A stretch of 64,000 nt of DNA, taken from assembly GCF_004210375.1 (NCBI RefSeq), contig NC_134837.1:167937310-168001309 (forward strand), in the 5' to 3' direction. Below the pieces are notes generated by a model, which ran no database searches, was not told the DNA's origin, and was given only the letters and a program-made list of their open reading frames with translations. This document shows, one piece after another, positions 996 through 52,266 of the stretch; the first letter of the stretch is position 1, and every line of letters begins with the position of its first letter. Source of the stretch: Tachypleus tridentatus (lineage: Eukaryota; Arthropoda; Merostomata; Xiphosura; Limulidae). Both the position numbers and the translations under genes were made by a program.

Positions 996-1254
996 TTAGA
1001 ATTTCGCACAAAACTACTTGAGGGCTATCTGTTCTAGCCGTCCCTAATTTTGCAGTGTAAAACCAGACGGAAGGCAGCATGTCATCACCACCCATCGCCA
1101 ACTCTTGGGCTACTCTTTTACCAACGAATAGTAGGATTGACCGTCACATTATAACGCCCCCCACGGCTGAAAGGGCAAGCATGTTTGGTGCGACTGGGAT
1201 TCGAACTCGCGACCCTCCGATTAATAGTGGAGCGCCTTAAACGCCTGCCGGGTT
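996..1254 (-). repeat. SINE-A copy, near full length
   Basis: Contains the 3' block (TTTCGCACAAAACTACTTGA), the central CCACTATTCGTTGGTAAAAG-like block in reverse, and the tRNA-like head with its B box. Small changes in the head. Confidence 0.9.
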
Positions 1255-3650: not shown

Positions 3651-4289
3651 AATTCTATCAATATTATATAACTTCTTGAGGTAGAATTATCTGAAAAGCC
3701 AATTATTTTTAAGAACATTATGAAAACTGAATAACTGAAACCTAACATTGATAAACTGATTGTTGCTTCAAATACGACGTGCTGTTAAACGGAACTTTGT
3801 CTAACACGTTGTGTGCCTTTAAAAGGCCTTACTAAACTAACAAGATTTCAAAATACTGACCAAAGCAACAGAACTTTACAACATATGTTATGTCATTGGG
3901 GGTTTTGTATGTGTTATTATGTTCATCAAGTTTTATTAAATCAACACGTGTTTGACAAATAAGATATCATTACATTTTTATACGTATATATATATATATT
4001 TCAGGTTATTAATATTCCTACTTTATTTGCAGGATTTAAATCTTTCTGTAACATCTAAAAGATTTTAATATTTACGCCATTTTTACAAATTTTTGATTTG
4101 ATTTATAGCGCTTTTCCAAGTATTTTTCAGTGTTACACAACCATACACTCTTCACTTTAAGTCTCCGAGTACATATACACAATTGAAATGTACCTGCCAC
4201 GTGCATGGATCCTTCTAATTGTGTATTCCCTTAGTTTCTTCTCTTACGTGAGGTGAAATATTGACCTATTTCATTTCCTCTTTTTGCCA

Positions 4290-4417
4290 CAGAGAGCAGC
4301 ACGGTCGATACACGCGGCGATTTTCTCTCCGCTGTAATCTTTAAAGCGAACGTTGAGGACGAATTATCTCTTTCAGTTGCAGTTTGTGATTACCTTGGAC
4401 TTTCATATCTACCAAAT
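4290..4417 (+). promoter_or_regulatory. Probable KIF12 5' UTR / promoter-proximal DNA
   Basis: About 130 bases just before the proposed start codon are more GC-rich than their surroundings and contain several CpGs (around 4300-4350). This fits a 5' leader or promoter-proximal stretch. I see no clear TATA box or initiator and cannot place a transcription start. Confidence 0.3.
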
Positions 4418-4431
4418 ATGTATAGCAACGT
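4418..4431 (+). CDS. KIF12: KIF12 exon 1 (start codon exon)
   Basis: Codes MYSN plus two bases of Val5 and is followed by a near-perfect donor (GTAAGTAT). It is chosen as start exon because the next exon needs two incoming bases, the donor is strong, and no other ATG-donor pair near intron 2 fits as well. The intron that follows is 6957 bases. Transcript evidence would be needed to confirm it. Confidence 0.6.
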
Positions 4432-7400
4432 GTAAGTATCTTTTTTTTTTACTCTCACTTTTGCTATTAGATTAGTCGTGGTCAAATTGAGTCATCTGTA
4501 TGTATTCAACAGATAGCGAGCCACTAAAATCTGTCAGACAAGGAAATATTTGTAGTATTATGCGGTTGCCTAGGAAACCGCTTTGTTAGTGGACAAGATA
4601 GCGATTAGCCAAGCAAAAACCTTTGTTTTTTAACTTATATTTTGATTGACGAGCTTTGTTTTCTTTGAGAGTAGTGTTACTTACGATATATTAAATCTAT
4701 TATTTCTACCGATTTTTATTAAAATTGGTAGCTACGTCAAAGCAAATAACATATTTTCATTGAATACAAATATAACGTAAAAATATAACTTACATGTTCA
4801 AATTGTTTTTCTCAATTAATTTGGCTCCATTTTCACAATCTTCTGTATTTTCAGCAAGTTCCAGTTGAAGGATTCATAGAATAGTTTTACTTTATAGTAG
4901 CCGTAAACAATTTCACATTACAGCATCACGTTAAGCCTACTAGAAAAATACTGACTCAAATAAAAGCTATAAATATAATAATTATTATTATTACAATAAA
5001 TATATTATATCTAGTTAATTGCACTCTATAAGAAAACTTGAATAATGACATAATGACTTGCCCCAGAAGACGCAAGTGATTTCGTATGCCGGAGGAAATG
5101 TTATAACTTGCATGTTTAATTCACTGCTGATTTCTAACTATTTAGTGCACAATGCCTTCACAGGTAGATTTTTAGCTTGGATGTAGATGTCACACTCTTT
5201 CCCAGGAAAATTATTTGTTTAATGAGGTTGCTAAATGATGTTGAGCCAAAGAACAAACCATTTCTAAAATGCAAGTTTTCAGTATTCTCCATAGAAATGA
5301 GCACCTTGCACGACAAAAAGTTTATGGTAGCAACAGGCGCTGAAATAACACTCCATAAAAATCCTTAACAGTTTTAATTATTCATAATGTGGAAACTATG
5401 GTAACGAAAAAAATCACTGAAACAAAATATCATTGCGAGGAAATTTAGTATTCCTCTCGACACCATTCACGATATAGTAATTTACGATATAGTAATTCTG
5501 GAGTTGACGTTGATGAAAGTTAACAAACATCTAGACACACCTCGAAACGAAGTGCTATCTTCATGAAAAAATGATGTTCGAAAAAACTGGAGTCACAGAA
5601 TTCCATTCGATCACGTATCTTCCAAGTTCTATCATATAATGCCAGTGAACTTTTATGTAGATGTTCCTTGGAAGGTTTCTTAGAACATGCGGTCTAAAAT
5701 TAGACTCGTTAACTTTTGTAGATTTACAACCTTTTCACTAAGGAGACATGATAATTTAAGTCAGTCCCACTATTCGTTGCTGAAAGAGTACCTAAGAGTT
5801 GGTGGTGGGTGGTGTTGATTAGCTGATGACCCTCACTTTTAAATTTGCATTAGCAAATAAAGCCCGTTTTGAAAACAAAATGAAACCTTTATAGATTCAC
5901 GTTCTCATGATAAATGAGTGGTCAGGCAATAGTGCGTGATTATGGTCATCAGTGTGGGCACGATAGACGATGTAACAAATAGTTCCAAGGGCAGCACCGT
6001 TCTAGGACCTTATTTGTGAAGTGTAGCTAAGCCTCAATACTATTTAGGTTAAATTCACTGTCCAAGAACAATGGTGTGATTGTATCGGAATTATATATTT
6101 TCGTGGCCCGGCATGGCCAGGTGGTGTGTATGTGTTTTTTTTTCTTATAGCAAAGGCATATCGGGCTATCTGCTGTCTTCACCGGGGTGGAATAGAACTC
6201 CTGATGTTTGCGTTGCAAATCCGTAGACTTACCGCTGTCTCAGCAGGGGAAGACCAGATGGTTAGGACGCTCGACTCGAAATCTTTGGGTCGCGGAGTCG
6301 CATTCCTGTTACACTAAAAGTGCTCGCCCTTTCAGCCGTGTGGGAGTGTGGGAGTTACAATATTTGGAGCTTTATCACGTATCGTTCAATTGCAATATTT
6401 GTTGGTTAAAGAGTATCCCAAGAGTCGATGTTGGGTGATAATGACTAGCTACTTCTCCGCTTACACCATTAAATTAGGGGCGGCTAGTACAGATAGCCCT
6501 CGTGCAGCTTTGCGCAAAATTTGAAGACAATAAACATATTTTCATATGTTTAAATCTTTATAAAATATTTCCAAGTTCACAATTATAATTTCTATTTAAA
6601 CTGCTACATAACATATTTAAAATGTTACCCTGAAACAACTGAATAAACTTTGTGACTTCAGTAAATGTGCTTTGAAGTTGCTTCACATGATTTTTTCAGA
6701 GAAGTTTTAGGTTCAAAACGATATCTTTATGGTATATTCTTACGGACGTCTACTCAGTTACATTGAAGAGTCCCCCGCTGGTACAGCGGTAAGTCTACGG
6801 ATTCACACTGCTAAAATTAAGGATTCGATTCCCCTCTGTGGATTGAGTAAATAGCCCGATGAGGCTTTGCTATAAGGAAAAACACACACATACATATTGA
6901 AGAAGTGAAACTCGAGCAAAACCTTTTTCCATACTTTATGACTAGGAGATATGAGAGTTTTTCTTGAAGGTCATCTTTGTGTTATTTTGTGCCATTATTA
7001 TTTCTTGTTTCGTTTTATTCGTGGAGCTCCTTCTTTTTAGAATACAACGTATGTAAATAAATATCACATAAGGGAACATAAAGAATAACAGTGACAGATA
7101 GGTCTTTGGATTATAAGACCAAATAAACGTTTTGGTGTTTTAATTATTAATAATCAAGACTTTGTTGAGGTTTGGTTTGAATTTCGCGCAAAGCTACACG
7201 AGGGCTATCTGCGCTAGCCGTCCCTAAGTTAACAGTGTAAGACTAGAGAGACTTGTTCCACTGTAGAAATATCTTGGTGAAAGCGCTCACCATGGTCATC
7301 GCTGTGACTGATTTATTATCGTATATCTATTTTAATGTCGATATAAATTGAAGGTGTAAGAAGTGGATCTATGCTGACATTTTAAACCCCATTTTAATGT

Positions 7401-10400
7401 AGTTTTCGAGCACGTAATCAGTCATCATAGCATAGTTTAATCTCTGAGGTTTCATAATTTTTTTAAGAACAAGTTTGAATAATTTCCAGGTAGAAAATTT
7501 TTCTGATTCAGTACATTTTTCAAAATCATCATCCCATCAGCGCTTCCCCAGTTTGTGACCTTTTGCTGATTTTTTATAAACCCGTCAGATATCTAAAACA
7601 ATTCCCATCTTTGTTTAGTATTTTTACACATTTCTTCATGGGTCCCAGTTTCATAAGAAATGGAAGCAGAAACATGGTTAGAAGATCCACTAAATGTTCA
7701 TACTAGATATTCTGTTATCCTGGTATGCAGTTCTCTTTCTCACAGGCCGTTATTTCTTTTTGATATTATTTTTATCATCTTGACTGTTCCGGAGACAGAA
7801 GAAGCAGCAATATGTGGTGTACTCACTCTGCAAGCCTAGCTGAAGTGCAATTAAGTTTAGATCACCACATATGTTTCACCTGTGATGATCACATTTGATG
7901 GCCTAGTGATCACATTGTGCAAAAACACATTGTTCAGACTAACTTAGATTAGTCAATACAAAGTTTTTATTCGTGAGAATGATGTTTAGTGCCTAATTCT
8001 TTCATTATTCTATGAACATTTATATATGAACACAAAGTATCTTACTTGCCATAGTAAGAAATAAGACTTTGAAGGCGTCTTTGGTAAACTAAAAGTCTTG
8101 TTTCTGGAACTAATTAATTATCTTGCTGTAAACAAGAGTAAAGAACTTTCCCATGCTTCTTTCATAGAGAAAAGTCCCGGATCAGGTCATTTAGCTAGTT
8201 CAGTGATCAGGTGAAACAGTTTATGTTGAGATATCACAGAAACAGAAATACTATATGAAACAGATGAAGATGATTCATTGTCCTTTTCGTAGGATAACTG
8301 TTTTATTTCCCAATTTGCTGATAAGTGTGGCACTAAAAGGTTATCCCTGTGAGGTATTGGTTGTATTGTAGATGCGGTATCTGCTTATTTACTAAACTGC
8401 GTAGTTTTTTCTGCATATCCAGAAACATTATTAATAACAGTTCTTTTCACGATCTTTGAGGTCAAGCCATATCATGACAAGTGCAAACGGCGTACATGCT
8501 ATATTTTTATTCAGCCTTTTTGTCAAGCCAGATATTCAAAATGTACAATGCACGTGTGAAGTTCAATATTTTTCTTGTTTACCTATTTTATACTAAATAT
8601 TTTGGTATTAACTAGCTTTACCTTGTATGTGATGTTTTGATTCGCGAATCTGTAATATATTTTCTACAGATGTAGCAAAAAATGTTTGGGTAATTTTTGC
8701 TCTTTCGGATTTTACTTGAACAAGAGGCAGCCAACAGTTTAAATGACTTTCTAAAAATTATAAAATAATTCATATTTACAAAACTAGATTTCAAAGGATT
8801 TTCAAACGAAGTTTTGCAGAATTTTGTTATTTCTTGAGTATGATACGACGAAGATTAGACTTTGTTTTAAGTGTGCGCGGAATAAGAAAAAGTGACCAAC
8901 TGAGTCAACTGAGAGAGATACTAAATTTAATTCAATCGTGGTAAGTAATTAGGTTTAAAAACACAGAGGTGATTAGGAATTAAAGTTATTTTTCTTCGTC
9001 CCTTTCTTGACTTGTTGGTAATTTTAGAGACGTGGTAGTTAAAGTTAGGGGAACGGTATGTGACTTCCATGGAAGATATGAAATGCATTTACTTTCTTGT
9101 AGTTGTAGTGAGACGATAGTGAAGCTTCGAGTCTGATATACGAGATCAGCGTGTCACGAGCAGAGACACCAGATAAAGAACGCCCACCACACAAGATCAG
9201 AGCCAGAGTTTATTGCTTGTTAATGACAATTATACAGATAATATTCAGTTATCGTAATGCAAATAAAGTAACAATAGACATTGTTTAATAAAAGACATAA
9301 GACTGACAAACTATTACAATTTAAACATCGTATGTATAACAATTCTACATTCTTATGTGACATTGTTCGGGTCGGTAACCTGAAAATAAAGAGAGAGAAA
9401 GAAGGACAAGACAAAACTCTCAATATGGTTGTTGAAGTGAGTGCTGTTTGTCACGTTTCTTGTTGTCCGTATAATTTCCATATGTTAATTATTAAAATTC
9501 TTAAAGTTTCACTTCGCTACATTTGAATGTCTCATCTTTTCCGTCGTTCAACTTTAAATATTCAACTTTAACATCATTAAAAATAAATGTTACAGACTTT
9601 GATAAATTATGAAAATAAGACAGTTAATAACAACAGATAATGATAAGATTTATCACTATTAATTGTAGATGTCAAATCAAACATAAAAGAATAGGCCCAG
9701 CGTGGCCAGGTGGTTAAGGCACTCGACTCGATTCGAAGTTCGCGGATTCGAATCCCTGTCACACCAAACATGGTCACCCGTGGGGGGCGTTATAATGTGA
9801 CAGTCAACCCCACTATTCGTTAGTACAAAGAGTAGTCCAAGAGTTGGTGGGTGGTGATGACTAGCTGCCTTCCCTCTAGTCTTACACGGCAAAATTATGA
9901 ACGGCTAGTGCGGATAGCCCTCGTGTAGCTTTGCGCGAAATTCAAAAACAAACTGTTTGAGTTTTCGTGTGTCTTCCGGTTATGGCGGTCGCATCTATGC
10001 TGCATATGAAAACCTGTGCACGCTGGCAAAGCTCAACAATGACTCTTGAAATAACAGTGGAACAGACGTGAATAATGTTGATGCCAAATTTTATTTCTCA
10101 AATGGGATATTCTACATTATACTGTTAGAAATTAACTAAACAATCTTTGATGTTTCAAAATGTGACGTAACCTAAATAAAGAATAAAAACGTAGATTTAC
10201 CATACGCTGTTGTTCAGCGGCTCTTAGCAGTACTGAAATAATTACTTTTTTACGCTGAGCAGTAGAAGTAATACAGAGCTTTGCCTCTGAGTGAAAGTAA
10301 AACCAAGAGTATAACACAATTGACTTATTTAAAGTCCATAAAGTAATTTAAACTGATAATTAGCTTCAACTTTTCCCGTCAATCTGGAAGAATACTTTTG

Positions 10401-13400
10401 CTTGTAGACTATAAAATTAGGATAATTTAATGACTATTTGGTGCGGTTTGTCTTTACGAGTCCCCCGTTGGTACAGCGGTAAATCTACAGATTTATAAAT
10501 CTAAAATTAGGGATGTAATTCCCTTCGGTGGACTCAGCAGATAGTCCGACCGATGTGGGTTTGCTAAAAGAAAAAAACACACACATACTCGTCTTTATTA
10601 TTAAATTTCCCCAGGCTTACAAGTGAACTACAAAGTATTATATTATTGAATATTTGTCTTTTATCATACAGGTGTTACAGGTGACCAATTCACAAAACAG
10701 TTAACTAGAAATGCTACTATATCATGGCAATTTTGTCGTTTAGCATAATTGTTTTACATGTTAACTGGAAACATTACTGTATCATTGTAATTGTAAGTTT
10801 TAACAAGTTGTTATACGTTATGATATTACGAAGGTACTAGACATATTGCTATGTTGTTGGTTGCTTTTTAGCATATTGTTACACGTTATATTACTACATG
10901 TTAATTAGAAATGTGACTACTGTTTAAGGTTTGTCTTTTAACGTCATGTTGTCACGTATTATTTCATTACAAGTTGACCAGAAATATTACTGTATTGTTG
11001 TAAAAGTGTCGATTAGTATCAGGTTGTTACACATTATGTTATTACAAGGTAACTAGAAATATTACTACGGTATTCTTGTCTTTTAGAATAATGTTGTTAC
11101 GCGTTACGACAATACAGGTTAATTAAAAGATTAATTTGTCTTAATAATTTCATCTTTCTGATCAAACTTTTAGAGCTAGTTAGCATGAAAAATTACCAGG
11201 TAATTGTCAGACATTAATTAAATGTACAAATTATCTTCGTTGTTCAGCAACAGTTAATTCTGCCTTTGATTTTTCTACCATAATATTATTATAAAATTTA
11301 CTACCTTTTATAATTTATTGATATTTTCTGTACTATTATAGTTGATTGCATAACTAATATATCTGTATTTTAATATATATTTGTACAGGCCAAGTACAGC
11401 AAGTTCTCAGGAGTCTCTGATGTCACTCAGCTCAGACGAAGGTCAAGGAGGTAGTGATTTGGATAATATTAATGTAGTAGTCAGGTGTGTAATCTCTTAC
11501 TACAACAAATCAGTTCTTTGTTTTATTACTTACACTGAATATATAAAATTAGATTTGAAGAATAGCAAGTTACACTTCAGTAATATAGAACGAGTGTGTG
11601 TAGCTGTGCGCGAGATAAAAGGAGGGTCTCCATTAAACATAATAACAATATATAATCTTCATATCAGAAACAAGAAAGAGCCGAAAAAAAGACAAAAAAT
11701 ACTCAAGATCATACATGACATTTCAATAACTATTGAAGGTACATGTATAGTACTTCAATAATCGACTGCAAGAAGCTACAAGGTTTATTGTACAAAAAGA
11801 AAAATAGATACAAAGATAATCAGTGATGTCGAGAAAACTCACTTGTAGAGAAATATATATGCAAAAACGGCTCGTTTGGGTTGAGAAAATATTTTACATA
11901 GAAGAGCGAACAACGTTTCGACCTTCTTCGGTCATCGTCAGGTTCACAAATAAAGAGGTAACTGACAGGAAGCTGACCACATGTTTGGAAGGGGTTGTGT
12001 AACTGAGTGTCGGAATGTAGAGGGCGGTGTTAGATGTTTGAATATATAATTTTTTTATTTTATTATATTAATATAGGTATAAAGGCGTTCCTTTATATTG
12101 GTTTATTTTGGGTTTAAAAACAGGTTAAAAACTCACATAAAAGCTACATGATTCTTAAACAATAGTTTGGTAGTTCTACAAGTTTGTTTTTTTCGAATTT
12201 CGCACAAAACTACTCGAGGGCTGTCTGTGCTAGCCGTCCCTAATTTAGCAGTGTAAGACTAGAGGGAAGGCAGCTAGTCATCACCACCCACCGTCAACTC
12301 TTGGGCTACTCTTTTACTAACGAATAGTGGGATTGACCGTAACATTATAACGCCCCCACGGCCGAAAGGGCAAGCATGTTTGGTGTGATAGGGATTTGAA
12401 CCTGCGACCCTGGGATTACGAGTCGCACGCCTTAACACGCTTGGCCATGCCGGGCGAAGTTCTACACGTAAAACTACCAAAATCAATCAACAGTTATTTT
12501 AAACACTCATACAAAAGCTTCAAAATTATCTAATTTTTTGTAATTAAAAATAAATTTAATTAATTGCAAAATACATCTTAGTTTATAGATTGATTGTAAA
12601 ATGTATTTTAGTTTACGGATTAATCTCAAAATGCCCTAATATATAGTGAGACAAAAAGGAAAAAAAACGCTTTTTATTATCATGTATTAATATTGTTAAG
12701 ATTTGGAAATATAATACTATTTAGTTACAGAAACTGGGAAACGCATTACACATTTTTATGAAACTTTAAAAAATTCAGAAATAACACAAAATAAGGTATG
12801 CTAACTGTAAAGGGCAAGGGTATTAGGTAGTAGAAAATGACGTGTAAAGAGTGAGAAATTACAAATTGTATCGATATAAAAATACATAAAAATTGTAGTT
12901 CCAACCACACTGTTTTAATATGTAACAACTCAATATTTAATATCACAAAAAGTGAAATTATTTATAATCTGATGTAAAACATCTGGTCTGAAATTGAACG
13001 AACTGATATATAAAATAGCATTTGTAATATTTGTTAAGGTGAGAACTCCTGTATTGTTATGTAATTCTAAAGTTCTGATAAAAACGACTATTAAACTTTG
13101 GACTTAGGTGAAATTAAATGTTTCAAAAATCAATTTTTTATTGCTAATATTGCTTCTTCAGTTGCAAAACAGTGTGGTAAATGTCCATTAGCGTCAGTTA
13201 TGTTAAATACTCTTGAAAAGTATCAAACTACCACTAAATAGAAATCTCATTGTACGTTACGATGTTCTTATGGATAACTGAAAATGTTAAACGTGGATAT
13301 ATATATATAACAAACCAAATGTTTCATAGTTTCATTTCAATTTTCTTCCTTATGACGAAAATGTTGTGTACTTGATAACGATTGCACAAGTGATCGAAAC

Positions 13401-16400
13401 GTTGTGCCTGTTCTAAAAATAAATTTTACATACTATAATAACTGTAACTTGTTAAAGAAATGTTCTGTAGTTGCAAATTTTGTTTAACTTGAAACATTAG
13501 ATGAGAGACGGAATATGATATCTAGCAGAGGTTAAAAACAGTATTTGTAAGCGATCTTTATTTAATTGTTATAAACGAAAAGAATTAAAAATAACCTAAA
13601 ATTGTTTCTGTAGGTAATATTTGTCGCTTGTTTTTAACTAAACAGATTAGATACTAAAAGGACTAAACTCCATAATGGATGTTAAAGTTCACACGAAAAA
13701 TCCTTAGTACTCATTTAAAGAATATATTGTAAATATAATAAAAATGTGAAGCCGGTGGGAAGTATATTAATAGTATATGATATTTAGGATGAAAAACAAT
13801 ATAACCGAAAACGAAACCATGAGATATGTCTGTAATGATGATTCAAAACTTTCTTAATATGATATAAAATACGGTGTAGCAAGTTAACGACGTAATAGAA
13901 TACAAGTGTTCAAAATACATATATGACAGGATGTTGTGTTACATAATAAACAACGAAATTGAAAGGAGACCAGTTGAACTCAGACATGGCATAAAATTTA
14001 TACGAATTTGATTTATCAACATGCTAAAATATTGGCATTTGCTTTGGTATTTTATTGTGTTAGAAGAAGGATAGAATGCTATCGGTTCAATTCAGTAAGT
14101 TAGAAAAGAGGCAGGTATATTGAAATCACACTCTAATGAAAATATCTGCATTTTCTTTATATTTTTGTAGATATTACTTTCGACTCACAAGTTAAATTTA
14201 ATCTTGCCAATTAAGATCAAAAGAATTAATACTTATGTGGCACTAATTCACTCTGCTAATGAATCAACTATTCCAGTGACACCGCTGAGTGTCTGTGGAC
14301 GTAACGCTAAAAAAATCGTGTTTCGATAAATGTAGTGTGGAGAGAACAGCTCATTGTGTAGCTTTGTGCTTAATTTCAAACAAACTAAAACAAATTAATA
14401 TAACTAATTAGTAGAAACAATAATAATGCATACACAAAAATGATAAACGTTTTAAATGAAGTTAAATACAATTTATAATAATTTTAAAACTCAAATTACC
14501 TTATGTTCATAAACTCACATTTAGCATTTGGTATTAATTGATATAAAATTAAAATTCAACTTTCAGTTTATCTTAAGACATCTAAAATCAACAACCTGTA
14601 AATATATATTCACCGGGACCGACACATTGTAGAGTCCTTATCGGGCATGAATGCAGATCTAGTCACGCATTCAATCAAACGATTGTTATTCAAAAAGTTG
14701 AAAAAGGCTTACAGTTTATATAGGAACGTATTTTTTTTAAATATAAGATTAACTTCAGTTTCACAGTCGTCAAAGTTCATCAGCCATTAATTTTTTCTCG
14801 CCATTAATTATTTCTCGCCATTAATTATTAGAAAGTTGACACTGATGTCAGAGGTAATCACGTTTTATTTAAACATGCCTTGCAAAGCTAGACGAATCTT
14901 CGTGGAATTCAGGATAGTTCCCTTTCTTTCTTTTAATATATGTTCAAATAATGGCTTTGCAAACTGATATATGCTCAAGATATTAACGAAGAGAGATTAC
15001 ATTGCTATTGATCAGAAGTGAAATAGAAATAAATTAACATTAATATTGCTGATGTTTAGTATGGAAGACACAGAATATTTAACAGACATGTTTAGTATGG
15101 AAGACATAAGAGTTCTGAGAGACATATTCAACTTGTTAAAGATACTTACTTTAGCCGTTCGTCACTATTCTTATGTTCAGCATAATAGCAGTGATTGACA
15201 TTAAAAGTGCTTTAAGATATGTATAGGTTATAGCTAATGTTTGTATTGTTGTTGCAAGTTTAATAATTATGGAATATCCTCCCTTTTATAAACTGGGGCC
15301 TTTTTTCTTGAAAACAGCTGTGAGCATAAATCTTTACTAACAACCAAAATACACGAATAGAGAGGAAAACTCGAAATTATACTTATAATTGAATAAATAA
15401 ACAAGTAAGCTCGACAACAGCGATGTATTTGATTTATAATATATATATATTATAAATGTATATATTACATTTTTGTAACCAATGGTAGAGCTACATTTTC
15501 ATTGTTATTTAACACGTGTATGAATAACGGAATAACCAGTACATTAACTAATGTGTAATAAATGCTCGAGAAGCAATTATTCCGTAAGACGTGGGCAGAA
15601 ACAATTCAGATAACAAGTAATACACGTTTAAATGAAAACAATTCTGTTTTATTCCATGCGATATTTTGGGCACGTGCATTTCGTGAGGCTCAATATACCA
15701 TATTAACATACACTGCGGAGAGAAGGTCGCGCCAAGAAAACTAAATTCTGTGTAATATTTTTGACCAGGCCTGGCATGGCCAAGCGCGTAAGGCGTGCGA
15801 CTCGTAATCCGAGGGTCGCGGGTTTGCGCCCGCGTCGCGCTAAACATGCTCGCCCTCCCAGCCGTGGGGGTGTATAATGTTACGGTCAATCCCACTATTC
15901 GTTGGTAAAAGAGTAGCCCAAGAGTTGATGGTGGGTGGTGATGACTAGCTGCCTTCCCTCTAGTCTTACACTGCTAAATTAGGGACGGCTAGCACAGATA
16001 GCCCTCGAGTAGCTTTGTGCGAAATTCCAAAACAAACAAACAAACATTTTTGACCATGGTTAAACAAAACAGACATCTTGGCTCGTCAGCATTATCACAA
16101 TCCACGGACTAGGGTATTGTGTATCTCAAGACTGCTGGTATGGGTATTAAAACGTTTATTAAGATGCAGTAGAGAACAACATGAAGATAACCTAAGAAAG
16201 TCGAAAAGTTGTTCTCTGCTTTATTTTAATAAAAGTTTTAATACCCATACTAGCCGTCTTGAGATACATTTTTACTTCAAGTGAGTTTCTAGTCATTACG
16301 AGTCACGGACTAGAGTATTAATTTCAATCGTTAGTTCTGCAAAAATTATAATGTAAATTAAATAATAAACATTACAACGTTTACAGTATGACATATTGTG

Positions 16401-19400: not shown

Positions 19401-22400
19401 ACTCTTACTATATTTCCGATTACACGACAAAACTATAATATAAATATAATTTTTTCAGACCAGTCTCTCACGTTTACATGAACAATTGTAAGATATATTA
19501 ATGTATGTGGGTTATTATTTTAAACAAAATTATATATATATTATTTTATAAAAGCCAAATGAGTTCGCAGATGCGAAACTTTTCAAACTATTCTGATTCT
19601 ATGATTTCATTTAAAATTCTGGTCTCTATGTAATATTTTTCTTCGAATTCTGTTGTATGAATTATAATAGTTGAAATACTATATAACGGAAAGTTCGTTG
19701 AATAGAACATTTCACTTCAGCGGTTTATATAAAGAAAAAAATATATAACTTTCCAAAAGAATCTTTAATTAACTTCATCTTTGGTGAGTGCATAATAATC
19801 TTTTAAATTATATTTTTCAATTCTTACAGAATGTTTTGTTAATACAGTTATTTCTTTTTTCCAATATTTTGTGGTATACGATGTTGTTGTTTTGAATTAA
19901 GCACAAAGCTACACAATGGGCTATCTGTGATCTGCCCACCACCGGTATCGAAATCCAGTTTTTAGCGTTGTAAGTCCGCAGACATACCGCTAAGCCACTG
20001 GGGAGCAGTTTAGGATGTGATGTTAAAAGGCTGTTTTATTGTTTAACTATCTTACAGACTTTGATGTTTCTTATTCCAAGTATCCTATACACTTTTCATT
20101 TTATTTTTGGTATCTTATAAAGTTATTTGTTTATTGTTTTCATTATTGTACAGAATTTGCAGTTTGCTATTTCAAGTAGAGTTTACTGGTAATTGATTTA
20201 TTGTTTCCAGTAGATGACAAGGTTTAACATTATATTTGTTTGTTGTGTTCCATCAGTTTTAAGAGATTTTTTAATGTACTTTTGTATATTATCTTTCAGA
20301 AATTTTTCTTTTACGTAATTGGTAATTATTTCTCGTATATCACAGGTATTTATTAAATATACACACAAAGGCTTATTTTTAAAATTACCCTTTAGCACTT
20401 AAATTATTTTAAAAATATTAATATAATGGTAATAATAGTAAGTTGATAATAATTATTATTAATTTCTAATTGCTTTAGAGTTCGTCCCCTAGCTAGTCAT
20501 GAAGTTGGAAAAAAAGACATCCAGGCTGTTCAGTTTCCAGGAGAAGGACAGATCATGGTAACTCTAAACTTGTCTTTATCTTATGTGCTGTGTTTGGTGT
20601 AATCGACATATCACCAGGTTCCTGTTGAATATTAGTCTTATAATGTTCTAGAACTAATCATTTTAATGCTGTTTTATATGATTTTAATAGTATGAATTAG
20701 TTCATCAAGAGAATACTTTTAAAGTTAATTAGGTATACATTTATATTTTTATATTAATTGTGCATGCGTTTAAGAGTATTTAATAGTGATGTCAATATAA
20801 AGAAAGACAAACAGCATATCTTGTGAAACTTGTTTGTTTGTCTATTTTGGAGCCTAGTCACACTAGGCTGTCTGTAATGTCAACTGTGGGAAATCGAAAG
20901 ATAGATTCTAGTGCTACAAGTCAGTAAACTAACAATTATGTCGTATGTGTTTAATCTAAGACTGTATATAATTTCCATAGTGTTTCCTGGTTTGATAACT
21001 ATAAAAAATAAATCTGGATACGTGAGAATAAAACACTTCGTAAATCTTTATACATTTTTTATGTGTCTCGACTATTTGCATGTGTAAAGGTAATGCCTGT
21101 CTGAAATGATATTGTCGATGTTTTTTTAATACAAAGAACCTAAATGGACTGTCTGCGTTGTCTTACAGTTCACTACCCTAGAGAGAACATGAGAACCACG
21201 GACGAATTTATTCTCTCTAAGAGTTTACCTATATGAATAGATAAAAATAATTTCGGTTGAAGTTTTTATTTGTGTTGAATATTCAAGGTGAATACTTATC
21301 TTTTGAAAATGTATTTCTTTACTCCAAGATAGAATGGATAAATGGATATATTTTATAGTGATAATTATCTGTTCTGCTTTGGTAAATAAAAAAACGTGAA
21401 AGAAATATATAATGTTGAGGTTCTAGGGAAAGTTGTAACTTACTGAAGATGGAGGTTGTCTTTGTTACGTTGTAACAAGCAATCTTTGTCTGTGTGGATG
21501 ATAAGAAGGAACATATGTTTGTTCAGAAAGGTATGAATGGTTGTTGTTGTTCCGGATTATAAATATGAATATTTGAATGAATATGTGTGTGTTTCTTCTA
21601 TTATAGTATAACAAGTATTAACTGTATATTCTGGGTTATAAGAACCAGTCATTGGCTATTGTTAAAAATAGACTTCTAGGATAAAGTTTAGTAATTAACA
21701 AATACAAATTATAAGTAACGCTGACAAGAAAAAATTTACTATTATTTTTTTTGGCGTTGCATATTTTTTTTTTATTCTATAAGCCAAAGAACTTTTAATA
21801 GTTATAACAAAAAAACATGATTATTCTATGTAATTTTTTCATGAAATTCGTTTATGACTCTCTTCTAATAGGTTGATGACCAGATTAATGGGCAGTCTCG
21901 TGTGTACACCTTTAATGTTGTATTTGAGCCAGAAGCTAGTCAAGAAGATGTATTTGAATTTTCAGGACTTAAGAGGCTGGTCGATATGGCTCTTGATGGG
22001 TAAGGTTAAACAAAATATGTATCTTTATGTGCTCTTTGTTTTCAAAGTAGTGAAATTAATCTGATCGAAGACGTTTTATTTAACTGTGTTAAGATATATT
22101 GTCATTTACTTGTTTGTATATCATTACAGTTTAAATATTTTTAATTTGAATTTTCAATCAATAATGATAAGTATTGATGTTTTTGTCTGATTTTACAGTT
22201 ACATAACTATTTATATTTTAATAATTGTTTTTAGACACTAACAACTTTTAAATGACCTTCAAATTTTTTATGTTTATGCAAAGAAAATAATTTACTCTAA
22301 TTTTAGCTTTGTTATTGAGACGATATGTTTTGTTATTAATATGTTTCCTTTTTGTACAGTCTTCCTGAGTATTACGTTTAATTCTTCCTACATTTTTGTT

Positions 22401-25400
22401 TAATGTACGTCTTATTGTATGTAGTAATTATATTGGTTACATTTTCAGATTTGCTTGTACAGTTCTGGCTTATGGACAAACAGGAGCAGGAAAAACGTAC
22501 ACTTTGACAGGACCACAGGTATTTCTTAATAAAATGTTTCAAATAAAAATATGGCTAATAGCTGTTTATTTCAGCACTGTGTGAATAGTTATTTTCAAGT
22601 TTTTATGTAAACTTAAAAAATTACATTAACATTTTACAGTTTAACATTGTTGTTCATATTTGTTTACTTTTTCCTTTATAATTTTATTAATATTTTACAG
22701 TTTAACATTGTTGTTCATATTTGTTTACTTTTTCCTTTATAATTTTATTAATATTTTACAGTTTAACATTGTTGTTCATATTTTTTACTTAATAATTATA
22801 TTAACAATTTACAGTTTAACATTGTTGTTCATATTTTTTACTTAATAATTATATTAGCAATTTACAGTTTATCATCGTTGTTCATATGTTTCAATTTTTT
22901 CTTTATAATTATATTAGCAATTTACAGTTTAACATTGTTGTTCATATATTTCAATTTTTCTTTATAATTATATTAACATTTTACAGTTTAATATTGTTCT
23001 TTACATTTTTTTAATTTAAATTGTCAGTTACTTCTCAGGAAGTCAGGTAGTAAAAATAGCAAAACCGTAATTAGAACGTTTCTAGAAAACAGTCGAGAGT
23101 TGGCTTGAAAATAAAAAAGAAATATTTGCTAATAAGAACCTATGGAATGTTTACATTCCTTTTGATATTGTGAGATAACAATAACTTGGCTTGATTCAAG
23201 TGATACAAATCTAAATTTAAATTCATAAAGTATAAGAGTTGGAAATACTCATGTAAAGCTGAACAAACTATATGAAACAACTTTACGAATATAATCTGGA
23301 ATCCTGGCTTTCACGTTGAACCGAATGGATAATTTTAAGTTAGGTTCAATGTAGTACAGCCAACCTCTCTAGCAGAATCCATATTGGCGTACAAACAGTT
23401 AATCATATATATAGGGGTGGGCAAAAATAATGATCTCCCTTGAAAATGTTGTGAATTTATTATATCTTCCATTAGATAGCAAAAAAATAAATATGTAAAA
23501 CCAAATGTTTTTAGAACGCACTCGATGAGATCTATTCAAATATTATCTCAAATCCTAATTTTAACACTGGATTTTGCAAATATGTGAGCGTTTTACAATT
23601 TTAATTACATATTCTTATAAAAAAGTGTTGTGCACGTGCTGTAGTTTAAAATATTCTTATTGCAATTAGCTTACAAAATGTTCAAACAAGTTTGTCTGCA
23701 ACTGTGGAGTCTTTAAAGGATGTCTTAGAAATAAAGGAATTGATGTTATGGAATGGCCAGGTCAATCAACTGATATAAATTCGATTGAAAATTTATGAAC
23801 TGAGTTAAATCGATTAACAAAAGATCACAAGTCAAACACGGAAGATGAACTTTTTGAAGTACTCAAAGAAGGATGGCAGCCAATCACTCAGGAATATCTG
23901 TACAAACTCACTGAAAGCATAACACGTTGATGTGAAGCAGTACAGAAATCTAAGGGTAGACTAAATACCCCCTGCTAGTACAGCGGTAAGTCTACGGATT
24001 TACGACGCAAAAATGAGGGGTTTGATAACCCTCGGTGGGCTCAGCAAATAGCCCGATGTGGTTTTGCTATAAGAAAATATACATGCTAACTAAATATTAA
24101 CTAGTGAAACTGTTTTGTGTTATTTTCAGTTTCAGTTTTACGTCCCATTATTGCAGAGAAAACTAGTTTTCAATATTTTTCTGTTATCTAATGAAAGATA
24201 TAAGAAATTCACAACATTTTCAAGGGGGGCACTTTTTGTCCATCCCCTACATACAGTCATATGAAAAAGTTAGGACACCCTATGAAAGCCTGTGTATTTT
24301 TGTAGCATTTTTGGATATATAGATATTTAATCTCAATTTTAACAATACTGAGAGATTATAAGAATATAACTAAACAATTAAAATTGAAGACAAGATTTTT
24401 CAAGATCTTCTGTAAATGTAATTCTACAAAAATGCATATTCTAACTGAGGAAAAAGTTAGGACATCCTACCTCCTAATAGCTAGTGTTAACCCTTTGGCT
24501 GAAATAACTGCAGTGAGACGCTTCTTGTAGCCATCTACCAGGCTCTGACATCGGTCTGAAGAAAGTTTGCCCCACTCATCAATGCAGAATTCTTTCAGCT
24601 GTGAGATGTTTGAGGGGTTTCTTGCATGTACAGCCCGTTTCAAGTCACCCCACAGCATCTCAATGGGAGTAGATCTGGGCTTTGACTCGGCCATCCCAGA
24701 ACTTTCCATTTCTTAGTTTTCAGTGGATTTACTGGTATGTTTTAGGTCATTGTCGTGTTGCGGGGTCCAGTTCTGCTTCAGCTTTAATTTTCGTACACAT
24801 GGTCTCACATGATCCTCAACCACCCTCTGATACACAGTAGAATTCATGTTGGATTCTATGATTGTGAGCTCTCTAGGTCCTGTTGCAGCAAAGCAGCCTC
24901 AAACCATGACACTTCCACCTCCATGCTTCACAGTTGGTATGATGTTCTTTTCCTAGAATGCTGTATTTGGTTTACGCCAAATATGTCCTCTGTTCTGGTG
25001 TCCAAATAATTTAATTTTGGACTCATCTGTTCAAAAACATTATTTTAGAAGTCCTGTTTGTCTACATTCTCTCTGGAAAACTACAGCCTGGCCTTGATGT
25101 TTTTCTTAGAGAGCAAAGGTTTCCTCCTTGTACACCTCCCATGCAAGTTAAACTTGGGCAGTCTCTTTCTGATTGTAGAGGTATGCACTTTTACATCAAC
25201 AGTAACCAGAGCCTGCTGTAGGTCCTGTGATGACATGTTAGGGTGTTTGGTGACTTCTTTTAGCATCTTGCGGTCTTTTAGGATCTTTTTAAATCCCTTA
25301 CCAGACTCATAAGCTGCTACAATTTTCTTTCTGAAGGCCTCAGACAGCTCTTTTGCTCTCTCCATGGTGCTCACTCTCACTTCAACAGTCAGGAACACAC

Positions 25401-28400
25401 CAAACTAAATGTCTGAGGTTTAAATAGGGCAAGTCTCATTCAAAATGCTGAGTAACGATCTTCTAATCAAGTGCACCTGGTGTGATACACCTGTGTGTAA
25501 GTTGAGCCATTTTAAGTGGGAATAAATTTGGGGGTGTCCTAACTTTTTCTCAGTTAGAATATACATTTTTGTCGATTACATTTTACAGATGATCTTGAAA
25601 ATTCTTTTCTTCAGTTTTAATTGTTTAGTTATATTCCTATAGTCTCTCAATATTGTTAAAATTGATATTAAATATCTATATATCCAAAAATGTTACAAAA
25701 ATACACAGGCTTTCATAGCGTGTTTTAACTTTTTCACATGACTGTATACATATATTTATATTGCTGCATTAACATTACTATAAAATAACACAACCTGATC
25801 AACTTTTGCTGGAAAACCAGTTATAATTCTTTTTAACGCATTGTGTTTTCGTCTCTATGAATGCAATTATTTAAACATTTTAGAAAGAAGATGCAGGAGC
25901 AAGCCACGAGCCTGGCGTGATTAATCTTGCATTCTCTTACCTGTACGAAGGAATCAAACAGAGGAAATCAGAAGATTTTGTTATCCATTCTTCCTACCTA
26001 GAAATTTATAACGAACACGTGGGTTTAATAGTGTTTATTTGGTTATTTATTATATTCGCAAATTAATAATACTGGTAGATGGTGAAAGTTTACGTCACAA
26101 ATATGTTCAACGTGTCATTAAAATGTTTAGACATAATGAGAATATTAAGATGTTAAACAACCCAGTAGCATTTACTCTAGTGTGTAATTCTCTTTGTTCA
26201 GATATTGTTTTTACCAAGTTAAAACAGATACATGAACATATAGAACACATGTATCTTGAAATGTGTTGCAGAAAAGTACATAAAGCTTCCTTTAGCGGAA
26301 ACATTTCTTAATTTAAAGGATGTAATTTTGAATCGTCAAACCTCGACCTTCTGATGTGGGCCTGATAGGTTCCACAAGAAAGAGACAGAAGTGTAAAAGG
26401 TACATAAATAAGATAAAATAAAGCGCTGAGAATGTTTAGAAAGTGTATTTTGCAAATTATTCATTCATTAACTCTCTAGAACTTAGATCTGTAACTTCTA
26501 TCTGACAGTCATCCAGGTTTTTGCCTACATATTTTAGGATATATTAAGATAAAATAAAAGGTATATTCAAACCTAGTGTTAAAACTGATGCTTGGACCAT
26601 TATCCGCACAAACTTATTTTGTAACATTCATTTATATAAATTGACGTTATGTTGATATATTGGTGTGTGTATTGTGTCCTGGGTAGTATGAATCTCTATT
26701 AACAGTAGAAAAAAGTGAATTAAACGGTTTTTCTCTATAGTGGCATCTTATATTACATGAATATATTTTCACCAAGGCAAGACAAACCTTATTAGAACAC
26801 GTAAAGTAACGTGTAAATTTACAAAAGACAGTTAAAGAAGAGGTTATAAATTATATAATAACTAAACATAACAAAAGTATGTTTTTGCTATTTATTGATT
26901 TCGTAAAATCTTAATTAACCAGAAATACATATTTACCTCCGTGAGACGAATTAAAGAGAAGATCCAAAAGTAAAAAGTAGTCTTCATCTGAAAATAAATT
27001 TATATTTCCTGTAAATTTAAAAGTATTAATAAAATATTTAACTTATTTCTATTTGAATTTATTTAATAATAAGTTATTTTAAATGTATTGGAATTAAATA
27101 TAACTTTTACATGTTCTGAGCAAAATTAACAAGCTCAGCAACTAAAGAAATCAAAATAATAATTTTAATTTAGTTACTTTGAATATGGTAGGTAAGGAAT
27201 TGGAGGATTGCCAGTTCTGGCAAAAAAAAAAGAAAAAGTGGTATCCAAGCATAGCATTGATTTTCTGTCTTCTTTTATTAATACAGGAATTAAAAAAATA
27301 TCGCTTGATTCGATTCAGTTTACAAAGAAACAAGAGAGTCAGGAAACTTTTTAGTTGTTTACCTTCTAGTTAATATTTTCTTTTCTACTGTATCCAAGAA
27401 GATATCACTATAGCTTTACAAATTGCGAAAAACAGGTAAATGACGCTAATGTCTTTAACTGGCCGATAAAAATGTTATATCTTTTACGACGTTACATGAG
27501 AAGGGCCAGCATTTCATAACAAGCATCGTTATTGATAAATCTGATATCTACCTTTTAGTATGCAGTATTTTATTCAAACCAGTTTTACTTGGAGTCTAAA
27601 TTGAGTCGGGTGAAAGGTAAAAAATCTCGAAAAACAAACGTTGCTGACTGATTCGCTGATCCTGAGAAAGACAACTGCACAACATCTATGCACACTGAGG
27701 CTTCGTAGCTTTAAATATATAACAAAGATTATGTCTCATTTTGAATCATGTGTCCAGTCTGTGTATTTTCTTACTAGAAAACTAAGTAGCTTAACTAGAC
27801 TAAAATTGACTTCACAGTTTTACTGACTTATCATCCCATTATAAAACAAGCATGTTTAATACTAAAGCAGAAACCAGTTTCACTTTAGAATGCCACGAAA
27901 TATCTACAGAAGTTAAATTTTGGTGCTGTAACCCGAGGACTTATTGCAGAGTTTTATGTGTTTGCTAATGACTCTTGCTTCATCTATTTGCAGTTTCAAC
28001 AAGTTTAAAGCAAGGCTGCTGGCTAAAAATTGGCATATTTCTAAAACAAAACTGCTCTACCAAGAAAAATAAGTTGCACGAGAGAGATGAGTGGTCTAAC
28101 AAAATCGTGTTCTGATGCTACAAAGGCTTCTAACATTGATAACCCTACAGCCACAGGCTCAGTTAATATCTTGTTGGCTCAGACGAGTAGATCAAACATT
28201 GGTCCAGAGAATTAATCTTGGGCAAAAGAAGCATGGACGATGAGGAGGAATGATACCTGTTGATTGCAAGAACACTTTGGGGGACCTCTACTGGTCTTCC
28301 AGGACCAGAGCTCGAAACCTGATCGAAACCAATTATAACCAGTCAAGAGGAAACGCAACTACTATTGGTGAATAACCTCTGCCTATCACAACTATTTCAC

Positions 28401-31400: not shown

Positions 31401-34400
31401 GATCCACACACCTTCATCCGTAGACAGGGCAAGCTGTCTCTCGTAGACCTCGCAGGTTCTGAAAAAACGAAGAAAACCAACAGTAAAGGAGAAACTTTGG
31501 TGGAAGCCAACAACATTAACAAATCTCTGTTAGTTCTTGGTAAGATGTTTAGATAATATTTAGAGGACAATAAAATGTTACTAGTTTTTAGCTCATAAAA
31601 AAAGACCTAGGATAATAACAGAACAGTCAGTAAAGTGAAAAATCTTACATCTCTTGAAAATGTTTTTAAAAGTCAATTGGTTTGGTTTGTTTTGAATTTC
31701 ACGCAAAGCTACACGAGGACTATCTAGGTTAGCCGTCCCTAACTTAGCAATGTAAGGCTAGAGAGGGAAGGCAGCTAGTCATCATCACCCACCGCCAACT
31801 CATGGGCTACTCTTTTACCAACGAATAGTGGGATACCAACGTCACTTATAATGTCCCCATAGCTGAAAGGGATAGCATGTTTGGTGCAACAGAGATTCGA
31901 ACCTGCGACCCTCAGATTACAAGTCAAGTGCCTTAACCACCAGGCCATGTCGGGCCTTAAAGTCAAGATTATTCTATATGTCAGCCAATATTCTCTAACT
32001 TTACAGTGCTTATTTCTTTCAGGGAATTGTATATCGGCTTTGGCTGATCCGAGAAAAAGAAGTGGACACATACCGTACAGAGACAGCTGTTTAACCAAAC
32101 TTTTGGCTGAAAGTCTTGGCGGTGGAGGAATGGCACTTATGGTATGTTTTCTTCTTCTTTCAATCTATAAAGCATTTTACTGTCATTTTTTCTTAGACTA
32201 ATCTGATATGAATGAAACATTAATCAACCTGTTGGATTTATAATTTATTCCTTTCAGTATCAGTTTGTAACTTTAGTCTTTTACTCTTAATGCTTATTTT
32301 TGATAACAACCTAATACAGCTATTTGTGTTCTTTAGATCGCTTGTGTTTCTCCAAGTAGAACTAATGCACCGGAAACCATCAGCACTCTTCGATATGCTT
32401 CCCGAGCTAAGCGAATCAAAACTAAACCCATTGTGAGAATGGTAAAAAAACTGTTGTAGTGAGATATGTAATAGAAAAAAATAATAGAAAAGCATTGATA
32501 TGTTTTAAAATCCAGTTAATATTATGCAGTAGTTATATATAAAACATGTTAACCTTTTGTTTTTTTACAAACTCATAACTTGTATTACACTACATAAAAG
32601 TGGATACTCGGATATTCAAGTTTTCAAACAAAATATTCTGTTCTACACATATAACGAGCTTATAAAGACTTTTTGTCGCGAATTAATACTTTAAGACAAA
32701 TTTTATTTAACGTTTTGTTAAAATTAAACGGCTTATGATAGCTCTAACTTTTTACCTTGATATAAATGAATATTTTATATTAGACTGGACCAAGTTCAAA
32801 CGTTTTCTGAGTTTAAGAACAACTGATAATCAAATTACATGACTCATAATTAACACATTCTCTTATGACCAATACTTTGTCTATCAGGATCCCAGGGAGC
32901 AATTGATCATGAGTCTGAAAAGAGAAGTGAAACTTTTAAGAATGGAAAACACTTACTTAAGACAACAGGTAATTTTGTATTCAGTGAAACTGTTGCTAAT
33001 TAGTTAGTATTAAATATATGATTATAAGAGCTTGTAGCTGTAGATCAGTACAACAAATAAAGTCGATATACAACGTATCTGTAATCTTGCAATGCCACGT
33101 TTATAGGTCATCAACTGTCAGAGTACAACGTTTACTTTTAGATGCAGAACGAGAAACAATGAGACACGTTTTAATATTACATGTACATTACTTAAATGAA
33201 ACGTTTAAAGGGGAGTTTGAGCTCTTTCTTCATGATGACTTCCATGAGACTGTTCTGGGGCCCGGCATGGCCAAGCGTGTTAAGGCGTTCGACTCGTAAT
33301 CCGAGAGTCGCGGGTTCGAATCTCGGTCGCACCAAACATGCTCGCCCTTTAGCCGAAGTGGCGTTATAATGTTACGTCAATCCCACTATTAGTTGGTAAA
33401 AGAGTAGCCCAAGAGTCGACGGTGGGTGGTGATGATTAGCTGCCTTCCCTCTAGTTTTACACTGCAAAATTAGGGACGGCTAGCGCAGATACTCCTCGAG
33501 TAGCGTTGCGCGAAATTTAAAAGAAACAAACAAGATACTGTTCTGAACGGGGCGAGAATGTTTGGCGCAGATTATGCAAGCACGTTACTAACAAATGAAA
33601 TATCCCTTCAAGAACTACTCGAAGCAATAAAAAAAAAAGCACCAGGTGAAGATGAAATACAAGCTATCCTTCTAAAAAATGGCACTCCGAAATTGTTTGA
33701 CCACCTAAATTCACTTTTTAACTTATCTCTATCCTCAGGATACATCCCAGTTTCTTGGAAGCTTGCAAATATATTAATGTTCCATAAGGAAGGAAAGCCA
33801 GTAAATAAACCTAATAGCTACCGACCAATCAGCCTGACCAGCTGTGTAGGCAAGATTTTTGAAAGAATAATCAGTAATAGACTCTCCACATTCTTGGAGA
33901 TAACATCAAAATTACCAAAAGAACAAATTGGATTCAGGAAATTTAGACAAACGACAGACCACCTAATCAGATTAACCGAAATCATAATAGATAGCTTCAG
34001 TAAAAAAGAATGTACTGTCGCTTGCTTCCTTGATATCGAGAAAGCATTCGACACTGTATGGCACGATGGTCTAAGGTTCCGTATGAATGAAATAGAACTA
34101 CCGCGAGGAATTAATCGCTGGTTATCTAACTTTTTGGAAAATAGAAAGTGTAGAGTAAATGTTGAGGGTACTTTTTCTGAATACTTTACTCCTGAAGCTG
34201 GTGTCCCTCAGGGAGGGGTGGTTAGCCCTATACTCTTCATCATGTATGTAAACAATATGCCGCTGAAGAATCCTAATCATGGATTCTCTTCACAGTTCGC
34301 AGATGATGTGGCAGTCTGGAAAAGTGCCGCAACACTTACGATAGCAGCCACTAACATACAACCGCAACTAAATAGAACAAGTGAATACTGTCAAAAATAT

Positions 34401-47421: not shown

Positions 47422-47697
47422 TGGCCTGGCATGGACAGGTGATTAAGGCACTCGACTCGTAATCTGAGGGTTGCGGGTTCGAATCCCCGTCGCACCAAAC
47501 ATGCTCGCTCTTCAAGCCGTGGGGACGTTATAATGTGACAGTCAATCCCACTATTCGTTGGTAAAAGAGTAGCCCAAAAGATGGCGGTTGGTGGTTATGA
47601 CTAGCTGCCTTCCCTCTTGTCTTACGCTGCTAAATTAGGAACGGCTAGTGCAGATAACCCTCGTGTAGCTCTGCGCGAAATTTAAAACAAACAAACA
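47422..47697 (+). repeat. SINE-A copy, full length
   Basis: GGCCTGGCATGGACAGGTGA head, perfect B box GGGTTCGAATCCCC, body, and AAATTTAAAACAAACAAACA tail. Among the better-kept copies. Confidence 0.94.
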
Positions 47698-52074: not shown

Positions 52075-52266
52075 ATGACGAGAAATCCACTTGAAGTAAA
52101 AATGTATCTCAGGCCGGCTGCTATGCGTATTAACATTATTATTAATAAAGCAGAGAACAACGTTTTGACCTTCTTAGGTCAGCTTCAGGTTAACAAAGAG
52201 AGAGTTTGCAAACTGCCTTATCAGTAAAAGTGTTAATACCCATACCAGTCTTTCTGAGATACATAT
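52075..52266 (-). mobile_element. Penelope-like tail fragment with decayed hammerhead
   Basis: Left part GATGACGAGAAATCCACTTG and AAAATGTATCTCAGGCCGGC matches the 39388 copy; the right part ends ACCCATACCAGTCTTTCTGA, giving an imperfect fold-back. The centre keeps the long hammerhead-bearing segment between the arms, so this copy shows the layout before arm collapse. Confidence 0.62.
52155..52195 (-). ncRNA. Hammerhead ribozyme-like motif, two core changes
   Basis: On the - strand: CTGAAGC (expected CTGANGA), stem II TGACC/GGTC with TAAGAA loop, AAAAC (expected GAAAC), then GTTGTTCTCTGC. One change in each half of the core; likely inactive. Confidence 0.5.

What the first reader, a model, noticed from the sequence alone, without database searches (positions are those of the whole stretch)
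11905..11950. Intact-core hammerhead ribozyme motif antisense in KIF12 intron 2
On the - strand the sequence has CTGACGA, a four-pair stem II (GACC/GGTC), GAAAC, and six complementary bases flanking for stem I, with a minimal AC/GT stem III. All hammerhead core positions are kept. Penelope-like elements are known to carry such motifs with very short stem III; I have not seen this one described in a horseshoe crab intron.
Basis: partly seen in the sequence, partly recalled or inferred. Interest (0 to 1): 0.7.

Follow-up and report, generated by a model that had tools for sequence, protein, structure and literature searches.

The report
Retrotransposon tail with minimal hammerhead motif
The ribozyme-like motif in this gene's intron is one of many thousands of copies of a repeat left behind by a Penelope-like retrotransposon, a kind of element already known to carry such small motifs, so the find is real but ordinary.

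Summary
Two points were overstated. An extra T (11934) separates CTGACGA from stem II, so core spacing is not canonical. The AC/GT "stem III" has no loop and cannot close in one molecule. Rfam finds no hammerhead there, even at E up to 10.

The motif sits in a repeat of about 306 nt (11812-12117, minus). It holds the last 15 codons and stop of a reverse-transcriptase ORF plus the 3' tail of a Penelope-like element (PLE). It is 87-97% identical to the 3' ends of four longer elements from this genome. The core pattern occurs 13,224 times genome-wide; the reversed control occurs 0 times. Two further copies in this window have broken cores. In 50 aligned copies the motif decays like its flanks, without covariation. 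The fragment is antisense in a kinesin-gene intron.

Minimal type I hammerheads lacking helix III are already published for PLEs. This copy is best read as an inert 5'-truncated insertion, not a host ribozyme. New member of a known kind; low interest.

The parts
11812..12117 (-). 5'-truncated 3' end of a Penelope-like retrotransposon (whole insertion, ends approximate; no clear target-site duplication seen by eye)
   Evidence: 40 places scored of 1533 candidates; the 39 other than the window itself cover about this stretch at 94-97% identity. Alignment to the 3' ends of longer elements L047, L048, L049, L052.
12068..12115 (-). last 15 codons and stop of the element's ORF ([15 protein letters not shown])
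   Evidence: translation; same or nearly the same C-terminus in frames of L047, L037, L015 and others
11906..11947 (-). minimal hammerhead-like motif (whole)
   Evidence: sequence; folding
11942..11947 (-). stem I, 5' strand GTGAAC
   Evidence: in subfamily 2 the inner AAC/GTT pairs hold in most copies, pairs 2 and 3 from outside are broken in 21 of 21, the outermost holds in 15 of 21
11935..11941 (-). core CTGACGA (C3 to A9; N7 = C)
   Evidence: N7 is C in 29 of 29 of subfamily 1 and A in 20 of 21 of subfamily 2
11934..11934 (-). extra T between A9 and stem II; departs from canonical hammerhead spacing
   Evidence: T in 29 of 29 and 21 of 21 aligned copies; one of the 100 places listed has C
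11930..11933 (-). stem II, 5' strand GACC
11924..11929 (-). loop II GAAGAA
   Evidence: majority letters differ between subfamilies at two of six positions
11920..11923 (-). stem II, 3' strand GGTC
11913..11919 (-). GAAAC-GT: core GAAA (G12, A13, A14, A15.1) and the loop-less AC/GT 'stem III' (ACGT palindrome)
   Evidence: cannot pair in cis (no loop)
11912..11912 (-). H17 (T); predicted cleavage would follow it (between 11912 and 11911)
   Evidence: inference from the hammerhead numbering (recalled); no cleavage data
11906..11911 (-). stem I, 3' strand GTTCGC
52159..52188 (-). second, decayed copy of the motif in this window (G8 and G12 changed)
16181..16210 (+). third, more decayed copy (4 mismatches to the strict pattern, first core letter changed)

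Best explanation
The motif belongs to the 3' tail (pseudo-LTR region) of a Penelope-like retrotransposon family that has filled this genome. Shown: the window holds a 5'-truncated 3' end of such an element, about 306 nt, on the minus strand inside an intron of a plus-strand kinesin gene, and the motif has many thousands of copies. Inferred: it arrived by reverse transcription of element RNA that stopped soon after entering the end of the ORF. Inferred from published work on related elements: in full-length element RNA the motif may cleave weakly, as a dimer through the ACGU palindrome or with help from the element's protein. Inferred: the isolated copy in the window is inert, because it is antisense to the gene, has no direct partner with an intact core in the window, cannot make stem III alone, and its family shows no copy-level selection on the core.
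For: Genome search: 40 places scored of 1533 candidates, the 39 other than the window itself at 94-97% identity over about 11812-12117. The strict motif occurs 13,224 times, control 0. The window piece is 97% identical to L047 5050-5312, the end of an ORF (3750-5099) with a Pfam RVT_1 match (E 3.7e-12), with the motif at 5227-5256; L048 97%, L049 92%, L052 87%. The last 15 codons and stop are still readable in the window. A C-terminal YKIQC...YIGET-like stretch is found in 27 of 85 loci scanned, some of them overlapping; three of these read YIR. Close motif pairs lie head to head, an arrangement described for PLEs in PMC3846280 (passages): my count by eye from the first 100 places listed is 15 of 16 divergent and 1 of 16 direct under 5 kb; 12 of 12 divergent in the 35-nt listing (overlapping places). 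Two decayed copies in the same window. Core intact in 23 of 29 and 11 of 21 copies, within the range for random flank columns. The motif-like fold is 4 kcal/mol weaker than a competing fold (-11.2 against -15.2).
Against: The GIY-YIG domain is seen only as a motif by eye: no Pfam GIY-YIG match in the proteins scanned, and the genome-wide PF01541 search (150 of 1532 candidates scored) gave four places, none inside a locus that I hold. No RT tree was built, so PLE membership rests on motifs, architecture and the tail motif. Transcription from the minus strand was not tested, so activity of this copy is not excluded.
Confidence: 0.92

Rival explanations
1. A functional host ribozyme: the intronic copy has been kept to cleave an antisense or intronic RNA of the kinesin gene.
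For: The core letters are intact in this copy while two other copies in the window are broken.
Against: At this age an intact core is expected anyway: 23 of 29 sister copies have it, and random flank column sets give a mean of 20.8 of 29. The motif is antisense to the gene, cannot make stem III alone, and folds better into a non-hammerhead hairpin.
Confidence: 0.03
2. A conserved PLE sequence that is not used as a ribozyme at all, for example an RNA hairpin recognised by the element's protein or a DNA signal. This agrees with the PLE origin and disputes only the catalytic role.
For: Extra T, no stem III, non-compensatory changes in stem I, no Rfam hammerhead hit. In PMC11167929 mutations that kill the hammerhead do not affect insertion in vitro, and no RNA-seq ends were found at the cut site. 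Passages of PMC3088659 report that an insertion in the core near C3 of a natural variant impaired cleavage under standard conditions.
Against: Between the two subfamilies the only majority changes inside the 30-mer are at N7 and in loop II, where the hammerhead model tolerates change (3 of 30, against 101 of 276 flank columns). But 22 of the 30 positions were fixed by the search that led to subfamily 2, and the 8 free ones differ at the flank rate (3 of 8). In PMC11167929 a similar motif cleaves when protein is present and loses this with C3 or G8 mutations.
Confidence: 0.25
3. Chance resemblance to a hammerhead.
For: No covariance-model support.
Against: 13,224 copies against 0 for the reversed control; 0 hits in 200 shuffles of the window; same class of motif published in PLEs.
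Confidence: 0.02

Closest known systems
Minimal type I hammerhead motifs of Penelope-like elements (Cervera and de la Pena 2014; Lunse, Weinberg and Breaker 2017; titles seen in reference lists, papers not held, contents recalled; summarised in PMC7761336 and PMC6155905, passages read)
   Same: Type I core letters, helix III absent, thousands of dispersed copies, location in the tail/pseudo-LTR of a PLE. The ACGU palindrome as a shared feature is recalled.
   Different: One T between A9 and stem II (whether published PLE motifs share it I could not check). Close copies in the listed places are mostly head to head rather than in direct tandem, so a dimer in one transcript is not available for those pairs.
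Poseidon PAc of Anolis carolinensis (PMC11167929, section 3 read in full)
   [quoted passage not shown] a start codon at the start of stem II; RT with a GIY-YIG C-terminus (in PAc; in this family the latter is by eye only).
   Different: In PAc the ORF begins at the motif. Here the ATG at that place opens a 13-codon frame only, and the motif follows the stop codon of the RT ORF by about 127 nt.
Penelope elements of Adineta vaga (PMC3846280, passages read)
   Same: Inverted, mostly head-to-head, 5'-truncated arrangement; pseudo-LTRs.
   Different: The passages read do not mention a hammerhead, and they describe families with single or few copies.
Metazoan retrozymes with canonical type I hammerheads (PMC7229834 and PMC7761336, passages read)
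   Same: Short hammerhead-bearing repeats in animal genomes.
   Different: Retrozymes are tandem non-coding repeats, in invertebrates mostly with a usable helix III. Only one marginal canonical hit was found here (34.1 bits, cut-off 34; 73 of 227,747 candidates scored).

Membership tests
Hammerhead ribozyme, type I | Conserved core letters CUGANGA, GAAA, UH | tested here: met
   present in the window copy; intact in 23 of 29 and 11 of 21 other copies
Hammerhead ribozyme, type I | Stem II directly follows A9 (10.1-11.1 pair next to the core) | tested here: not met
   T11934 intervenes; T in 50 of 50 aligned copies. Canonical spacing is recalled.
Hammerhead ribozyme, type I | Stem III able to form | tested here: not met
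   AC/GT contiguous, no loop; possible only between two motifs
Hammerhead ribozyme, type I | Match to an Rfam hammerhead covariance model | tested here: not met
   no hit in the window at gathering score, none at E up to 10 in 11850-12000; no hammerhead among the 6 hits at E up to 10 in 10 loci. No positive control was run.
Hammerhead ribozyme, type I | Covariation in stems I and II | tested here: not met
   no compensatory two-sided change in 50 copies; stem I pairs 2 and 3 (from outside) broken in 21 of 21 subfamily-2 copies
Hammerhead ribozyme, type I | Self-cleavage at H17 | not testable with these tools
   needs RNA
PLE-type minimal hammerhead | Core present, stem III diminished or absent, inside or next to a PLE | tested here: met
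   definition from passages of PMC6155905 and PMC7761336
PLE-type minimal hammerhead | Tandem copies allowing a dimer in one RNA | tested here: inconclusive
   1 of 16 close pairs in the listed places is direct, 15 of 16 head to head (my count); in the window the only same-strand copy is 40 kb away and broken. The tandem requirement is from passages of PMC6466107.
Penelope-like element | Reverse transcriptase | tested here: met
   PF00078 in L047, L048, L037, L001
Penelope-like element | GIY-YIG endonuclease | tested here: inconclusive
   YKIQC...YIGET...R..EH by eye in many of 27 loci matched; no Pfam GIY-YIG match
Penelope-like element | RT groups with PLEs in a tree | not tested
   no PLE reference proteins were held
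Penelope-like element | Inverted or partial-tandem, 5'-truncated arrangement | tested here: met
   described in PMC3846280

The most novel reading that the evidence does not exclude
In this genome a PLE family has spread a hammerhead variant with an inserted U, no stem III and, in one subfamily, a three-pair stem I to more than ten thousand places, with close copies mostly head to head. If it still cleaves, it must do so between two RNA molecules or with the element's protein, and it would show that the hammerhead tolerates an insertion at the A9/stem II border. The window copy could then be cut in trans if its strand is transcribed.
Probability: 0.15. Interest if true: 0.4.

Novelty: new member of a known kind. 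Interest (0 to 1): 0.12.

Why it matters
It shows how a hand-read ribozyme motif in an intron can be a common repeat, and gives a copy-level test (core decays like flank) that separates a relic from a kept ribozyme. The one open point of general interest is whether the inserted U and lack of stem III leave any activity in this very large PLE family.

Tried and rejected
Host ribozyme: rejected, since the core is no better kept than flanks. Chance: rejected. Canonical retrozyme: rejected for this locus; one marginal canonical hit genome-wide among the candidates scored. Covariation as support: none found. The variant listing (first 100 of 545 places, judged by eye) shows mostly one-sided changes in stem II, with one clearly different, fully paired stem II (GGCA/TGCC) that I did not follow and that could be chance (control 1). 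A viral-contig scan for the motif gave 0 stretches. A test free of search bias, reaching other PLE subfamilies through their ORF end, could not be run. Target-site duplication: flanks looked at by eye, none clear. Cervera and de la Pena 2014, Lunse et al. 2017 and Arkhipova et al. 2017 are not held. Passages of PMC10085705 and PMC11014351 gave nothing on PLE motifs beyond citations. Searches for this motif in horseshoe crabs: two of horseshoe crab, Penelope, hammerhead; 44 papers, 20 listed, none of the 20 with horseshoe crab and Penelope together; horseshoe crab, transposable elements, Penelope, genome assembly; 5 papers, none opened; Limulus, Penelope-like, ribozyme; 0 papers; two of Tachypleus, Carcinoscorpius, Penelope; 105 papers, 10 listed, none of the 10 with Penelope. 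Nothing specific was seen in those listings; this does not show that it is unpublished.

Full report
What is there. On the minus strand at 11947-11906 the window reads GTGAAC CTGACGA T GACC GAAGAA GGTC GAAAC GT T GTTCGC. Two things were missed: the extra T at 11934 between A9 and stem II, and the fact that the AC/GT "stem III" is one uninterrupted word that cannot fold on itself. RNA folding of a 44-nt stretch gives -16.4 kcal/mol, z = -3.57 against shuffles, but the best structure pairs core letters with CGUU. Forcing the hammerhead-like arrangement costs 4 kcal/mol (-11.2 against -15.2 for the 42-nt stretch). Rfam reports no family in the window at gathering score or in 11850-12000 at E up to 10, and no hammerhead among the 6 hits at E up to 10 in ten loci with further copies. 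I ran no positive control for Rfam; a model that expects stem III may miss such a motif.

It is a repeat. The 460 nt around the motif gave 1533 first-look candidates, of which 40 were scored; apart from the window itself they are 94-97% identical and cover about window 11812-12117. The strict pattern CTGANGANGACCN6GGTCGAAACGTT occurs 6660 times forward and 6564 reverse, with 0 for the reversed pattern. A looser one occurs 24,789 times against 524. With GTTCG added there are 8522, control 0.

It is the tail of a Penelope-like element. Window 12117-11856 is 97% identical to L047 5050-5312; L048 gives 97%, L049 92% and L052 87%. In L047 an ORF at 3750-5099 has a reverse transcriptase domain (PF00078, E 3.7e-12) and the motif follows at 5227-5256. 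Window 12115-12068 still encodes [15 protein letters not shown] and a stop, the same or nearly the same C-terminus as in the element ORFs. A C-terminal YKIQC...YIGET-like stretch is matched in 27 of 85 loci (some overlapping; three read YIR), a GIY-YIG-like motif by eye, though Pfam does not report it. The genome-wide PF01541 search gave four places with 150 of 1532 candidates scored, none inside a locus that I hold. Among the first 100 places listed I count by eye 16 neighbouring pairs under 5 kb: 15 head to head, 1 direct, 0 tail to tail. Three of the 15 (spacing 279) are near-identical duplicates of one another. The listing gives 12 of 12 head to head, largely the same places. PMC3846280 calls head-to-head the most frequently observed inverted arrangement in its Penelope elements (passages).

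Does selection keep it? I aligned 29 copies of the window's subfamily (the fetched loci without the window) and 21 of a second subfamily: L050 plus 20 of the 40 places, ranks 4 to 23, the other two near-identical top places and the 17 lower ones left out. All were picked by similarity to a copy with an intact motif. Within each subfamily the 30-mer varies about like its flank (1.8% against 2.5%; 5.1% against 6.1%). The 12 core letters are intact in 23 of 29 and 11 of 21 copies; random sets of 12 flank columns give means of 20.8 and 9.4, with 5-95% ranges 12-27 and 4-15. So copies decay much as expected without selection after insertion. Between subfamilies the 30-mer differs at 3 of 30 places (N7 and two loop II letters) and the flank at 101 of 276. 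This looks like constraint on the active element, but subfamily 2 was found through a pattern that fixed 22 of the 30 letters, the 8 free ones differ at the flank rate (3 of 8), and 32 of 276 overlapping 30-column windows, those around the motif itself included, differ at 3 or fewer places. Stem I has non-compensatory changes: pairs 2 and 3 from outside are broken in 21 of 21 subfamily-2 copies. Stem II never shows a two-sided change. Hence there is no covariation evidence.

The window itself carries two more copies, 52159-52188 (minus; G8 and G12 changed) and 16181-16210 (plus; four mismatches).

Gene context. Exon ends read by eye at 11389-11484 and 20479-20557 join in frame to ...NINVVVRVRPL..., and a kinesin motor match lies further on. 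The fragment is in the intron between them, antisense. KIF12, the intron number and the organism were not tested. The assembly has 2.17 Gb, and the contigs C1 to C13 seen in the calls are 59 to 276 Mb.

Comparison. Passages of PMC7761336, PMC6155905 and PMC7229834 state that many animal genomes hold minimal type I hammerheads lacking helix III, thousands in some, part of them mapped to PLE pseudo-LTRs, with unknown role and possibly acting as dimers. Passages of PMC6466107 say that the dimer needs a palindrome at stem III and, in eukaryotes, a tandem arrangement. PMC11167929 (section 3 read in full) shows a PLE motif of this type in a lizard that cleaves only with protein present and is not needed for insertion in vitro. 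The family in this genome fits that kind, with an extra T (not checked in the published motifs) and mostly head-to-head close pairs. The window copy is best read as a relic of it.

Noticed in passing
window 1000-1247, 2305-2519, 6261-6536, 9693-9954, 12182-12458, 15768-16044, 31677-31957, 33259-33533, 47423-47702, 49176-49444: A dispersed repeat of about 275 nt in both orientations, SINE-like in length, about 67-96% identical between copies (listing capped); one copy lies about 65 nt from the PLE fragment. No tRNA gene was found in the window.
   Followed up: partly
L060 1492-1608 and L055 515-609: Inverted neighbouring copies of the motif match the Rfam microRNA families mir-2513 (58.2 bits, cut-off 89) and mir-1791 (49.9 bits, cut-off 75) below their gathering scores. 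Some published microRNA hairpins might be inverted PLE tails; mir-2513 is named in a tick paper (listing only).
   Followed up: no
L047 261-1449, L051 563-891 and 2345-2827, L054 1-471: Head-to-head PLE pairs next to minisatellite-like arrays (periods roughly 70 to 125 nt), in L051 alike on both sides, as if inserted into an array (listing capped).
   Followed up: no
window 11894-11935 (-): The ATG at the A9 / stem II border opens a 13-codon frame ([13 protein letters not shown]), at the place where the lizard element PAc starts its ORF.
   Followed up: no
window 22611-23011, 24251-25747, 57236-57677: Direct repeats of about 79-82% identity (22611-23011), an inverted pair of 91% (24251-24467 and 25532-25747) and a tandem pair of 93% (57236-57677).
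   Followed up: no
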